A DNA stretch of 17,356 bases from Promethearchaeota archaeon (lineage in GTDB: Archaea > Asgardarchaeota > Lokiarchaeia > Sigynarchaeales > SOKP01), in NCBI GenBank assembly GCA_016839655.1, contig JAEOTW010000028.1, positions 1 through 17,356 of the forward strand, read 5' to 3'. The notes beneath the pieces were generated by a model. The model worked only from the letters and a program-made list of their open reading frames with translations, searched no databases and was not told the origin of the DNA. The number at the start of each line of letters is the position of its first letter. Position 1 is the first letter of the stretch. Made by a program: the position numbers and the translations under genes. Below, piece by piece: positions 12,250 to 17,356 of the stretch.

Positions 12250-12807
12250 ATGTCTTATCGCGGAAAGGTTATATTACTCGGAGATGCCGGTGTTGGTAAA
12301 ACTAGCCTGTTAGCTCAATATGTTGATGGCCATTTTAGTGAAGACTATCATCAAACCACAGGAGCAAATTTTCTAATAAAAGAAATTGATTTAACTAAGA
12401 TTTTAGATCAATTGGATATAAAAAACCCAAAATTAAAAAAAGATATTAGAGACAAAGGCTTTAAACTTTATTTTTGGGATATTGGAGGGCAAACAGACAA
12501 ATTATGGGCAAATGAATATTATTTTGTTCAAGCAGTTGGAGCGATGGTTATTTTTTCATTAGATAAAGTATCTTCCTTTGAACAAATTGATTTTTGGATA
12601 AATAAATTGAAAGAATTAAGTGGAGATGTACCATACGTTATAGTGGGAAATAAAAGAGATTTACAAATAAAAGTTGATAAAGAATTAATCCAAGATAAAA
12701 TAAAAATTGTTGGAGCAAAATATTTTGAAACTTCAGCAAAACTGAACGAGAACGTGAATGAAGCATTCGAGAGCTTATCAGTTCAGATTTTAAATACTTT
12801 TAAATGA
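12250..12807 (+). CDS. Ras/Rab/Arf-like small GTPase
   Basis: A 185-residue GTPase of the eukaryote-like small G-protein superfamily that is expanded in Asgard archaea. All five G motifs are present: G1 G11-D-A-G-V-G-K-T-S19, a G2 threonine in Q-T36-T37-G, G3 W-D77-I-G-G-Q81, G4 N134-K-R-D137 and G5 T161-S-A-K164. The G3 text D-I-G-G-Q resembles Arf/SRPRB proteins (D-x-G-G-Q) more than Ras/Rab (D-T-A-G-Q), while N-K-R-D and E-T-S-A-K are Rab-like. Q81 is kept, so GTP hydrolysis should work. Between switch I and G3 there is an insertion of about 20 residues (about 47-70), charged and probably helical. There is no C-terminal cysteine for prenylation and no N-terminal glycine for myristoylation, so membrane binding, if any, is by other means. 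The cellular role is unknown. Confidence 0.93.
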   Translation: MSYRGKVILLGDAGVGKTSLLAQYVDGHFSEDYHQTTGANFLIKEIDLTKILDQLDIKNPKLKKDIRDKGFKLYFWDIGGQTDKLWANEYYFVQAVGAMVIFSLDKVSSFEQIDFWINKLKELSGDVPYVIVGNKRDLQIKVDKELIQDKIKIVGAKYFETSAKLNENVNEAFESLSVQILNTFK

Positions 12808-12894
12808 ACTCTAAATAATCTTAAATTCTAAAACTCATTTTTGACCATAATACTTCCACTTTTATTTAGTTTCAAGATTAAATCAATACAAATT

Positions 12895-13629
12895 ATGAGT
12901 ATTTTATTAATCCCTGTTGCTCCGTTAAAAAGAACTAAATCTCGTCTTAGAGATTGTTTTTCTAATAAACAGCTTAAAGATCTGACTATCGCTATGTTTA
13001 AAGATCTTTGTAAGACATTGAAAAATGTTACTTGTTTCGATCAAATGATTGTATACTGCAACACTCCTGAGATATTGGAACTTGCTCAAGATAATGATTT
13101 AACTGGGATCAAAGAGGAACTATCTTCTCCTCGTAAATCATTTGATGAAGTCATAGAAGATCTGAATACAATTGCGATAAATAAATTTGATGCAAAACAA
13201 ACAGTGTTTTCATTTTTGGATTTAATATTAATTTCCTCAGAAAATTTCTATGAAATTAATCAATTAATTAAAGAGAACCAATTAGTTGTATGTCCTGCTA
13301 TTCATTCCGCAGGGATTTCTATTTTTGGGCGTAATCCTCCTAACATTATTTCCTCTTTTTTTTCAGACCCAAATATACCCTCACTAGTTGCTCTACTTAA
13401 TAATGCTTCTCAGAAGGGTGTAGATAAAATAGCAGTATATGATTCTTTTAGAGCAGGATTTGATATTGATATAAAACATGATTTAGTTTTAGGATATGAA
13501 TATTTAAAAATCCTTAATTTGAGGGATACAAATGTGTTCAAATTCCTTCAAAATAATTTAAAATTAGCTCTCAAAAAGACCAATGCAAATAATAATCGAA
13601 GTTTTAAAATTACAAAAAGAAAATTATGA
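12895..13629 (+). CDS. cofC: CofC-like 2-phospho-L-lactate guanylyltransferase (coenzyme F420 synthesis)
   Basis: A 244-residue nucleotidyltransferase of the CofC group, which activates 2-phospholactate or a related acid with GTP for coenzyme F420 synthesis. The start I-P-V-A-P-L-K-R-T-K-S-R-L matches the family signature P-V-K-P-L-x-x-A-K-S-R-L. The I-P-S-L-V-A-L-L-N-N-A and A-G-F-D-I-D-I-K-H-D-L segments match the later F-x-x-H-L and L-A-L-D-I-D-T-P-E-D-L regions. The start was moved from a TTG at 12841 to the ATG at 12895 because the signature begins there. Three sites are degenerate: D-L-I-L-I replaces D-L-P-L-L, S-F-D-E-V replaces the usual G-L-N-x-A, and A-G-I-S replaces G-T-N-A. The enzyme is therefore divergent and its substrate may differ. 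Its TGA stop lies one base from the convergent coiled-coil gene. Confidence 0.75.
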   Translation: MSILLIPVAPLKRTKSRLRDCFSNKQLKDLTIAMFKDLCKTLKNVTCFDQMIVYCNTPEILELAQDNDLTGIKEELSSPRKSFDEVIEDLNTIAINKFDAKQTVFSFLDLILISSENFYEINQLIKENQLVVCPAIHSAGISIFGRNPPNIISSFFSDPNIPSLVALLNNASQKGVDKIAVYDSFRAGFDIDIKHDLVLGYEYLKILNLRDTNVFKFLQNNLKLALKKTNANNNRSFKITKRKL

Positions 13630-14881: not shown

Positions 14882-16171
14882 TTATTTTAATGGTTTAATA
14901 ATCTTTTTACCATTCATATATTTCTGAAGTACTTCTGGAATTGTTATTGAATGGTCTTTATTCTGATAATTTTCAAGAATGCAACAAATTGTACGTTCAG
15001 TTGCTATTGCAGTTGAATTTAAAGTATGTAATATTTCTTTTGCTTGTTGTGAACCAACTTTTCCCATCCGAATTTTTAACTTTCTTGCTTGGTAATCCAA
15101 ACAATTGCTGCATGAAACCAGTTCACGATATGTTTTTGACGCTGGGAACCACGCTTCTAAATCATATTTTTTAGCAGCATTATCATTTAATTCTCCAGAA
15201 GCGATGTTTGCTATTCTGTATGGTATTTTTAAATCTTTATAAAGTTCTTCAGAATTAGTAATTAATTCTTCAAAATGATTCCATGAATCTTCAGGTTTAC
15301 TGAATATAAATTGTTCTACTTTTTCAAACCGATGAACTCTGAATATTCCTAATGTGTCTTTTCCATGTGATCCTGCTTCTCTTCTAAAGCATGATGAAAT
15401 TCCAGCATATTTTATAGGTAATCTATTAGGTTCAATAATTTCATCATAATGATATGCTGCGATAGTTTGTTCGGAAGTCGCAATCATATATAGATCTTCA
15501 TCTTGAATTTTATAGAGTTGCTCTTCAAAGTCTGCCAATTCTGCAGCAGCCTTCATTACTTCATGTTTAGTGAAAAAAGGAGTCCACATTGGAATGTAAT
15601 TTTTGTTTATTAATCTCTCTAAAGCAAATTTCAAAAGAGCTAAATTAAGAAGAACCAGATCTCCTTTTAAATAGAAAAATCTTGATCCCACAATTTCTGA
15701 AGCTTTTTTAGTATCGACTCCCCCAATTTTGGTGACTAAGTCGACGTGAGAAAGAGGTTTGAAATCAAATTTTGGATTACTCCCCACTGTCCGAAGAATC
15801 TCATTATCCTCCTCAGTTTCACCTCTAGGAACAGATTCATGTAGAATATTCCCTACCATATATCGATATTTTTCTCTTTGTTCTAAATATTCTGTTCTTA
15901 GTTTTTCTAACTCATCAATTTTTTCCTTAATTCTTTTTGAGTCTGATATAGATTCATCAGCTTTCTTAGTATCACCAGCTTTTTTATATTCTCCAATTTT
16001 AAGAGAAATTTCATTCCGTCTTTTTCTTAATTCTTCAATCTCTTGTAAAGCAGATCTCCACTTTTTATCAAAATCTAATACCTTTTCTGCAATTGAAGAA
16101 TCCTTAAACCTTTTTTCCTCTGATTTAATTATATCATCTAATTTATTTCTGAATAGTTCAATGTCAAGCAA
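14882..16171 (-). CDS. serS: Seryl-tRNA synthetase
   Basis: A 429-residue class II synthetase that charges tRNA-Ser, and also tRNA-Sec with serine, the first step of selenocysteine formation. The N-terminal 100 residues form the long antiparallel coiled-coil arm that grips the tRNA (R-K-R-R-N-E-I-S near 46 is typical). The catalytic core has T-S-E-Q-T-I-A-A-Y, motif 2 (S-S-C-F-R-R-E-A-G-S-H-G and F-R-V-H-R-F-E-K-V-E-Q-F), E-L-V-S-C-S-N-C with D-Y-Q-A-R, and motif 3 (A-T-E-R-T-I-C-C-I-L-E-N-Y-Q). It is the common bacterial/archaeal type, not the zinc-dependent methanogen type. The start is TTG, supported by AAGGAG seven bases upstream and by the family start M-L-D-x-x-x-F-R. The coiled-coil gene follows 18 bases later. 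Confidence 0.96.
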   Translation of the reverse strand: MLDIELFRNKLDDIIKSEEKRFKDSSIAEKVLDFDKKWRSALQEIEELRKRRNEISLKIGEYKKAGDTKKADESISDSKRIKEKIDELEKLRTEYLEQREKYRYMVGNILHESVPRGETEEDNEILRTVGSNPKFDFKPLSHVDLVTKIGGVDTKKASEIVGSRFFYLKGDLVLLNLALLKFALERLINKNYIPMWTPFFTKHEVMKAAAELADFEEQLYKIQDEDLYMIATSEQTIAAYHYDEIIEPNRLPIKYAGISSCFRREAGSHGKDTLGIFRVHRFEKVEQFIFSKPEDSWNHFEELITNSEELYKDLKIPYRIANIASGELNDNAAKKYDLEAWFPASKTYRELVSCSNCLDYQARKLKIRMGKVGSQQAKEILHTLNSTAIATERTICCILENYQNKDHSITIPEVLQKYMNGKKIIKPLK

Positions 16172-16689: not shown

Positions 16690-17356
16690 ATGATGTCTGA
16701 TACACAGACCATGGATGAACCGAGAATTGGAGTTTATGTATGCGAGTGAGGCGTGAATATTAAAGCTTCTGTTGATTGTGATGCAGTTAGAGATGCCATA
16801 GAAAACTTACCAAATGTAGTTATATCTAGAGTTAACTCATTTACATGTTCTGATCCAGGACAAAATTCAATAAAAAATGATATTTTGGAGCAAGATCTGA
16901 ACAGAGTAGTAGTAGCTGCTTGTACGCCAAAAATTCATGAACCAACTTATCGAGCAGTATTAATTGAAGCTGGTTTAAGCCCTTATTATTTTCAAATGGT
17001 AAATTTAAGAGAACACTGTTCTTTTGTCCATAGAGATGATAAAAAAAAGGCAACTGAGAAAGCAATAAGGTTGGTTAAAGCTGGGATTAATCGTGCTCGA
17101 GAATTAGAAAACATTCCTCGAAAAGAAATTCCTGCTGAAAAAGCTGTACTTGTTATAGGTGCGGGTATTGCGGGTATGAATGCGGCTTTAGACTTAGCTA
17201 ATCAAGGAATTCCAGTATATTTAGTTGAAAAAGAAGCCACTATTGGTGGTAAAATGGCACAATTAGATAGAATTTATCCAACTGATGATTGTGGGATATG
17301 AGTTCTGGCACCGATAATGGTAAATGCATCAAAACATCCAAATATAAATTTATACA
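16690..17356 (+). CDS. hdrA: HdrA-like heterodisulfide reductase subunit A, predicted double-selenocysteine protein (3' partial)
   Basis: The flavin-containing subunit of heterodisulfide-reductase-type complexes, which bifurcate electrons between ferredoxin, a disulfide and a hydrogenase or formate donor in the cytosol. The N-terminal domain opens R12-I-G-V-Y-V-C18-E-U20-G, then T-C-S-D-P-G-Q and V-V-A-A-C-T-P-K-I-H-E-P-T-Y, all HdrA hallmarks. The FAD Rossmann motif is G157-A-G-I-A-G162 followed by G-G-K-M-A-Q-L-D and Y-P-T-D-D-C201-G-I-U204-V-L-A-P. U20 and U204 are in-frame TGA codons at positions that are cysteine in usual HdrA proteins. The frame is otherwise open to the window edge; the rest of the TrxR-like domain and the ferredoxin domains lie beyond. 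An ATG at 16690 or 16693 with GGTGA upstream is preferred over GTG 16753, which would lose the conserved first 20 residues. Confidence 0.9.
16747..16749 (+). other. First in-frame TGA, predicted selenocysteine codon (U20)
   Basis: TGA in the sequence V-C-E-TGA-G-V-N-I, exactly where HdrA proteins have the second cysteine of the N-terminal C-x-C-G motif. The frame and homology continue without shift on both sides. Confidence 0.8.
17299..17301 (+). other. Second in-frame TGA, predicted selenocysteine codon (U204)
   Basis: TGA in D-D-C-G-I-TGA-V-L-A-P, at the second cysteine of the HdrA D-C-S-x-C-x-L-x-P motif, the region where methanococcal HdrA selenoproteins carry their selenocysteine as far as I recall. 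Homology (I-M-V-N-A-S-K-H-P-N-I-N-L) continues in frame afterwards. Confidence 0.88.

What the first reader, a model, noticed from the sequence alone, without database searches (positions are those of the whole stretch)
16690..17356. HdrA with two in-frame TGA codons: likely a double-selenocysteine electron-bifurcating subunit
The frame runs from ATG 16690 to the window edge, broken only by TGA at 16747 and 17299. Both fall at positions that are cysteine in HdrA (C-E-U-G and C-G-I-U), with conserved sequence on both sides and no shift. TGA ends at least four other genes here (7100, 9215, 12807, 13629), so the code is not reassigned. Chance nonsense mutations would not both hit conserved cysteines. 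Single-Sec HdrA is known; a second Sec in the N-terminal C-x-C motif is less familiar. Ordinary gene callers would start the gene at 16753 and stop it at 17301.
Basis: partly seen in the sequence, partly recalled or inferred. Interest (0 to 1): 0.9.

Follow-up and report, generated by a model that had tools for sequence, protein, structure and literature searches.

The report
Asgard HdrA with paired selenocysteine codons
The gene encodes an energy-metabolism protein from an uncultured Asgard archaeon in which two UGA codons, normally read as stop, almost certainly insert the rare amino acid selenocysteine, and some relatives have up to five such codons at cysteine positions that probably hold iron-sulfur clusters.

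Summary
Observation confirmed. The hdrA frame opens at ATG 16690, meets only TGA 16747 and TGA 17299, and stays open to the window end. In 125 distinct Asgard HdrA sequences, 293 of 294 in-frame TGAs in the aligned part fall on 6 of 26 conserved cysteine columns; site 20 is TGA in 116 of 124 and site 204 in 118 of 124. A eukaryote-type SECIS follows hdrA or hdrA-mvhD in 63 of 73 relatives (control 2 of 691), with covariation. The genome of the nearest relative found holds tRNA-Sec(UCA), SepSecS, EF-Sec-like, PSTK-like and TGA-containing selD genes. So both TGAs are very probably selenocysteine. Beyond the finding: 13 of 125 HdrAs have TGA at 20, 53, 78 and 204 together, one adding a fifth at 306. 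Site 204 equals Cys197 of a solved HdrA, which ligates the N-terminal Fe-S cluster of the partner subunit (PMC9012536, passages). My inference: these Sec residues ligate that one inter-subunit cluster, two in the window's protein and all four in some paralogs. Sec-HdrA in Lokiarchaeia is known; multi-Sec was probably noted in 2016 (recalled); a 2026 review lists one Sec for HdrA.

The parts
16690..17356 (+). hdrA, 5' part (222 codons), cut by the window end
   Evidence: 211-217 residues aligned to five solved HdrA chains, best E 2.3e-77; complete relatives are about 650-700 aa
16747..16749 (+). TGA codon 1, predicted Sec20 (C-E-U-G); aligns with Cys13 of the 5ODC chain
   Evidence: TGA in 116 of 124 distinct relatives, Cys in the other 8
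17299..17301 (+). TGA codon 2, predicted Sec204 (DDCGIU); aligns with Cys197 of the 5ODC chain, described as the inter-subunit cluster ligand
   Evidence: TGA in 118 of 124, Cys in the other 6
16846..16848 (+). TGT, Cys53; TGA in 17 of 124 relatives
16921..16923 (+). TGT, Cys78; TGA in 32 of 125 relatives
16741..16743 (+). TGC, Cys18; Cys in 124 of 124 relatives, never TGA
16753..17301 (+). truncated 182-aa ORF that a standard gene caller would report

Best explanation
The window holds the start of a Lokiarchaeial hdrA gene, the FAD-carrying subunit of a soluble heterodisulfide-reductase-type complex. UGA at codons 20 and 204 is recoded as selenocysteine by Sec-tRNA and EF-Sec, directed by a eukaryote-type (AUGA...AA/GA) SECIS in the 3' UTR of the hdrA or hdrA-mvhD transcript; one SECIS serves several UGAs. 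Shown: codons, conservation, SECIS and its covariation in relatives, machinery genes in the nearest relative's genome. Inferred: translation itself; and that Sec20 of one subunit and Sec204 of its partner are both ligands of the N-terminal [4Fe-4S] cluster bridging the HdrA dimer, on the low-potential branch toward ferredoxin, where selenolates may tune potential or ligand exchange. I rate recoding as Sec at about 0.95 and the shared-cluster reading at about 0.7; the confidence below is for the first with HdrA identity.
For: Frame and TGAs. 125 distinct HdrAs from 150 loci: 293 in-frame TGAs on 6 of 26 conserved Cys columns, 1 stray. dN/dS 0.024-0.038 between the TGAs against 7 of 7 relatives; 430 codons after the second TGA give dN 0.038-0.045, dS 0.95-1.07 in 4 of 4 pairs of relatives. 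SECIS in 63 of 73 3' UTRs against 2 of 691 stretches elsewhere; 43 aligned SECIS: 95.8% of cells paired, 79 two-sided changes against 24.8 in shuffles, 5-19 in slid controls. In loci fetched later: SECIS in 28 of 34 Sec-hdrA, 0 of 6 Cys-hdrA, 4 of 120 stretches inside the gene. Machinery in L001's genome: tRNA-Sec (UCA), SepSecS, EF-Sec-like, PSTK-like, two selD genes with one TGA each. Cys197 of the other subunit ligates the N-terminal cluster (PMC9012536, passages); residue 204 aligns with it. TGA fills 20, 53, 78 and 204 together in 12 HdrAs, and in L157 with 306 as well.
Against: No whole genome is held for the window and its SECIS would lie beyond the window end; SECIS and machinery are shown only in relatives. 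No peptide or selenium data. PSTK hits are under the curated cut-off in 4 of 4 genomes, EF-Sec in 3 of 4; tRNA-Sec passes its cut-off in 1 of 4. The 11 codons before the first TGA show weak constraint: dN/dS 0.24-0.33 in 5 of 7 comparisons, 0 with L001, not computable with L006. 10 of 73 3' UTRs gave no SECIS by the rule, 7 of them not explained by contig ends. One covariation measure is not clearly above shuffles (further pair types 21 against 19.3, 56 of 500), and the basal pair 14-42 is unpaired in 13 of 43. The SECIS rule was tuned after looking at the sequences. Ligand geometry was not measured: no coordinates were returned. Cys18 is also invariant, so which three N-domain residues bind the cluster is inferred.
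Confidence: 0.88

Rival explanations
1. Genome-wide reassignment of TGA to Trp (table 4) or Cys.
For: Public protein sets hold versions with Trp at the sites: of 7 that I read, 7 have W at 204 and the 6 that reach site 20 have W there.
Against: TGA ends 4 of 15 other ORFs in the window; where the sites are not TGA in the Asgard DNA they are Cys codons, never Trp; in the later set SECIS-like elements follow Sec forms (28 of 34) and not Cys forms (0 of 6); a tRNA-Sec with UCA is present in the nearest relative's genome.
Confidence: 0.02
2. Pseudogene or sequencing errors.
For: One relative (L068) has a stray TGA at a Leu codon, which may be such an error.
Against: The same two codons in over 110 distinct genes, purifying selection between and after them, frames complete to a stop in 72 of 79 loci, the other 7 cut by contig ends.
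Confidence: 0.01
3. Sec at both sites, but the residues serve separate selenol/thiol redox or protective roles and do not ligate one cluster.
For: CxxU at 201-204 looks like a thioredoxin-type redox pair, as a review table lists it (PMC13188914, passage); ligation was not measured here; Cys18 is as invariant as the Sec sites.
Against: Cys197 is described as a cluster ligand (PMC9012536, passages); the extra Sec sites 53 and 78 lie in the same N-terminal domain and 303/306 in a CxxCxxC motif of the inserted ferredoxin domain, where ligand roles are usual (recalled); Cys201 and Cys18 are never TGA.
Confidence: 0.25

Closest known systems
Sec-containing HdrA of methanogens (HdrAU of Methanococcus maripaludis; Methanocaldococcus jannaschii HdrA)
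   Same: same protein family; Sec listed in a CxxU motif, which fits our site 204
   Different: listed with a single Sec (PMC13188914 Table 1); here two, and up to five in relatives
Selenoprotein HdrA of Asgard archaea (Huang et al. 2024, PMC11227280; Sun et al. 2021, PMC9723677; Mariotti et al. 2016, not held)
   Same: same clade, hdrA-frhD/mvhD pair, eukaryote-like AUGA_AA or AUGA_GA SECIS with A-rich apical loop
   Different: the passages and the one section that I saw of the 2021 and 2024 papers do not mention more than one Sec per HdrA; the 2016 abstract, as I recall it, says that three families have multiple Sec residues, so the double Sec is probably not new
HdrABC-MvhAGD structure 5ODC (Methanothermococcus thermolithotrophicus by its title; called M. 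wolfeii in PMC9012536)
   Different: Cys at all sites; methanogen enzyme acting on CoM-S-S-CoB, an acceptor not shown for Asgard archaea
VhuD/MvhD (FlpD) with two Sec
   Same: multi-Sec partner subunit, next gene after hdrA in many relatives; two Sec listed in PMC13188914 Table 1
   Different: a small hydrogenase delta subunit of about 140-160 aa, not HdrA

Membership tests
HdrA (NF040770 type) | sequence similarity to solved HdrA over the N-terminal and FAD domains | tested here: met
   five solved HdrA chains, best E 2.3e-77; full-length relatives
HdrA (NF040770 type) | curated NCBIfam cut-off reached | tested here: not met
   L001 HdrA 810.5 bits against cut-off 1100 for NF040770, a 777-position model whose end (644-772) matches L001's separate MvhD; it is the best match all the same, over model positions 1-641
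HdrA (NF040770 type) | Cys of the inserted ferredoxin, TrxR and C-terminal ferredoxin domains | tested here: met
   in relatives only (columns 253-310, 393-410, 589-629; assignment of columns to domains from recall and PMC9012536); beyond the window end for the window's own gene
archaeal selenoprotein | in-frame TGA on a column that is Cys in homologues | tested here: met
archaeal selenoprotein | SECIS in the 3' UTR | tested here: inconclusive
   met in relatives: 63 of 73, covariation; the window ends before its own 3' UTR
archaeal selenoprotein | Sec machinery in the genome | tested here: inconclusive
   met in the genome of the nearest relative L001 (86.5% DNA identity over 6.7 kb); no genome is held for the window
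archaeal selenoprotein | Se incorporation in the protein | not testable with these tools
   needs mass spectrometry or 75Se labelling
flavin-based electron-bifurcating HdrABC complex | bifurcation activity with HdrB, HdrC and an electron donor | not testable with these tools
   mvhD and an FrhB-like gene follow hdrA in L001; among the + strand frames listed in the 4.6 kb after hdrA there I recognised no hdrB or hdrC (by eye); the - strand was not looked at

The most novel reading that the evidence does not exclude
Lokiarchaeial HdrA paralogs build a biological [4Fe-4S] cluster whose four protein ligands are all selenocysteine, three from one subunit and one from its partner, and repeated Cys/Sec exchanges have gathered along the ferredoxin-side branch (N-terminal cluster and inserted ferredoxin domain), with up to five Sec in one HdrA. 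The window's protein is the two-Sec form of this series.
Probability: 0.5. Interest if true: 0.85.

Novelty: new variant of a known kind. Interest (0 to 1): 0.62.

Why it matters
Selenolate ligation of Fe-S clusters is little known in nature (recalled). Among 120 distinct HdrAs with all six columns present, 6 have no Sec, 1 has one, 73 two, 24 three, 15 four and 1 five (loci chosen, so not frequencies). Such a homologous series, if it sits on the same cluster(s), would let one ask directly what selenium does for a low-potential cluster in an electron-bifurcating enzyme. In L157 one SECIS-like element follows seven predicted Sec UGAs (five in hdrA, two in mvhD), so the processivity of UGA recoding in close archaeal relatives of eukaryotes becomes testable. 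For annotation: standard callers split these genes or print Trp at the Sec sites.

Tried and rejected
Own genome: none held. Rfam and tRNA scans of the window: nothing. A wrong family accession (TIGR03149, a nitrite-reductase protein) was searched and tells nothing. First mvhD search patterns missed many genes; SECIS counts rest. The count of three TGAs in some mvhD genes was wrong for Sec: on reading them again, the last TGA is the likely terminator in L143, L148, L156, L157 and L159. A first alignment by motif lost 13 of 150 loci and was replaced. One search failed at writing its file and was repeated. Searches were answered with input errors (short term, illegal sign, wrong coordinates); one search was replaced on another locus; one search ran beside and its reference question was not repeated in full. 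Mariotti et al. 2016 is not held under DOI or PMC id, so whether it names HdrA as multi-Sec is from recall only. The structure model came without coordinates, so Cys-Cys distances were not measured. I rejected TGA reassignment, pseudogene and assembly error (see rivals). Of the 57 distinct SECIS hits, 43 went into the covariation test; 14 more divergent ones were left out. The tree is a quick one, with 32 of 115 inner branches open; Sec codons were masked in it but Cys at the same columns was not, so the change counts are rough minima. Fold-search rows 11-50 are thioredoxin-reductase-like flavoproteins. A second source (PMC6019823, passages) gives the low-potential path as clusters HA3, HA5 and HA6 without residues; I could not map these names to our sites.

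Full report
1. Observation. The frame from ATG 16690 has two stops in 222 codons, TGA at 16747 and 17299, and is open to the window end at 17356. The other two frames of the stretch have 24 and 25 stops. G+C by codon position is 50, 37 and 18%, as expected of a coding frame in 29% G+C DNA. The mechanical ORF is 16753-17301. TGA is the terminator of 4 of 15 other ORFs checked in the window.

3. The TGAs in relatives. In the first 79 HdrAs (of 80 loci; L070 lacks the N-terminus), 50,454 codons held 173 TGAs: 79 of 79 at site 20, 78 of 78 at site 204, 8 of 79 at site 78, 5 of 75 at site 306, and 3 elsewhere (one at a Leu codon in L068, two past the usual gene end in L055). I then searched 148 genomes of the phylum (132 with a match at E 1e-150 or better, at most 8 candidates scored per genome, list cut) and fetched 40 more HdrA regions, chosen on purpose: 20 with 3-5 TGAs, 14 with 2-3, 6 with none. 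Over 150 HdrA loci, 125 distinct after removal of 25 duplicates, 26 conserved Cys columns were read. TGA occurs at site 20 (116 of 124; 8 Cys), 53 (17 of 124), 78 (32 of 125), 204 (118 of 124; 6 Cys), 303 (3 of 121) and 306 (7 of 121), 293 in all, plus one stray in the aligned part. The other 20 Cys columns, Cys18 and Cys201 among them, are never TGA. The commonest pattern is Sec at 20 and 204 only (73 of 125); 12 have 20, 53, 78 and 204, and L157 has these plus 306; L141 has only 204; 6 have none. Because loci were chosen by similarity and by TGA count, these are not population frequencies. On a quick tree of 118 rows the fewest changes are 3, 7, 8, 1, 1 and 5 for sites 20, 53, 78, 204, 303 and 306, so Cys and Sec have probably been exchanged several times at the same positions.

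4. Selection. Against 7 of 7 close relatives, dN/dS between the TGAs is 0.024-0.038; the 18 codons after the second TGA show 0-1 non-synonymous against 4-8 synonymous changes. The 11 codons before the first TGA are less constrained (0.24-0.33 in 5 of 7, 0 with L001, not computable with L006). In 4 of 4 pairs of relatives, 430 codons after the second TGA have dN 0.038-0.045 and dS 0.95-1.07. Selection on the protein thus continues past both codons.

5. SECIS. The window ends before the 3' UTR. In relatives, hdrA is followed by mvhD (FlpD, PF02662), which itself has in-frame TGAs, or directly by the 3' UTR. The rule [A/G]UGA, stem 7-12 bp, A-rich loop, GA or AA finds a hit in 63 of 73 3' UTRs (50 after mvhD, 13 after hdrA) and in 2 of 691 same-length stretches of the same loci; the rule was shaped after seeing the sequences and follows the published model (PMC11227280, passages). 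Three of the 10 misses are contigs that end too early, two are hits under the threshold (L027, L028), and five had no hit. In 43 aligned elements, 17 pairs in three helices are 95.8% paired with 79 two-sided changes, against 24.8 in shuffles and 5-19 in slid controls; the number of pair types is not clearly above shuffles (21 against 19.3), and pair 14-42 fails in 13 of 43. In the later set, with a stricter rule, an element lies within 680 nt downstream in 28 of 34 Sec-hdrA and 0 of 6 Cys-hdrA loci; 4 of 120 stretches inside hdrA gave a hit.

6. Machinery. In the genome of L001: tRNA-Sec with anticodon UCA (62 bits, over the cut-off), SepSecS, an EF-Sec match (230.6 bits, just under the 242.25 cut-off), a PSTK-like gene (145.6 bits, under the 290.5 cut-off) and two selD genes over the cut-off, each with one TGA. 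The tRNA, SepSecS and EF-Sec genes lie within 7 kb of one contig. In the other three genomes searched, tRNA-Sec hits were below the cut-off, and of their loci scanned those that ARAGORN named were other tRNAs; SepSecS and TGA-containing selD were found in all four.

7. Mechanism. Chadwick et al. 2022 (PMC9012536, passages) state that in the solved HdrABC-MvhAGD complex one ligand of the N-terminal Fe-S cluster is Cys197 of the other HdrA copy, and that the electrons going out to ferredoxin pass this cluster and the inserted ferredoxin domain. Window Sec204 aligns with Cys197. The three other main Sec sites (20, 53, 78) are in the N-terminal domain, each 1-4 residues after the end of a beta strand of the model (strands 13-18, 43-49, 72-77), and 303/306 are in a Cys motif of the inserted ferredoxin domain. 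Three N-domain residues plus Cys197 of the partner make four, the usual ligand number of a [4Fe-4S] cluster. I infer that the Sec sites mark this cluster's ligand set, that the window's protein gives the cluster two selenolates, and that some paralogs give it four. No Sec site lies in columns 393-410, which I take (recall) for the TrxR-domain cluster on the HdrB/C side, or in the C-terminal ferredoxin columns 589-629. What selenium does there is not known; a changed potential, faster electron transfer or easier ligand exchange in a moving domain are open. [quoted passage not shown]

8. What is known. Sec-HdrA is long known in methanogens (PMC2933860, PMC11097638; passages) and in Asgard archaea (PMC9723677, PMC11227280, PMC11291895, PMC5424206; passages and one section). 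In what I saw of these, none says that HdrA has more than one Sec. The 2026 review's Table 1 gives HdrA one Sec and MvhD/VhuD two, and its text says that a small subset of its 119 families has 2-3 (PMC13188914, passages). My searches of the library (listings, and passages of the papers named) showed no statement of multi-Sec HdrA. Mariotti et al. 2016 is not held; I recall that its abstract speaks of three Lokiarchaeal families with multiple Sec residues, so two-Sec HdrA was probably seen there. Supplements were not open to me. The mapping of Sec sites to one cluster, and the four- and five-Sec forms, I did not meet in these searches.

9. Side result. Public protein sets hold these proteins with Trp at the Sec sites, apparently through table 4 (7 of 7 read), or as pieces of about 459 aa whose length and coverage (66-69% of the query) fit a start after the second TGA (those pieces were not read).

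Noticed in passing
L001:8026-8454; mvhD of L143, L148, L156, L157, L159: mvhD, next to hdrA, has two in-frame TGAs of its own in these six (e.g. CDKUGYS, IISUKEG in L001); in L143 four Sec codons in hdrA and two in mvhD precede one SECIS-like element.
   Followed up: partly
P0002, P0003, P0004, P0006, P0007, P0014, P0020: Public protein clusters carry Trp at the Sec sites of Lokiarchaeial HdrA, apparently a table-4 gene-calling artefact.
   Followed up: partly
L068, HdrA Leu codon aligned with L001 residue 167: A single in-frame TGA at a Leu codon, the only one of 294 off the six Cys columns; sequencing error or true change unknown.
   Followed up: no
window 14882-16171 (-): Seryl-tRNA synthetase (PF02403, PF00587), whose enzyme also charges tRNA-Sec (recalled), lies beside hdrA; the DNA of this stretch matches beside hdrA in many of the loci.
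   Followed up: partly
window 12250-12807 (+): Ras-family small GTPase (PF00071), as is common in Asgard archaea (recalled).
   Followed up: no
window 12841-13629 (+): CofC-like guanylyl transferase (PF01983), a hint of coenzyme F420 synthesis.
   Followed up: no
L001:8549-10039 (+): FrhB/FdhB-like gene (PF04432, PF04422) after mvhD: possible F420 electron-donor module for this HdrA.
   Followed up: no
L164, L165, L168, L170: Unusual Sec subsets (20+53+204 in three; 53+78+204 in L170), showing that the sites change independently.
   Followed up: partly
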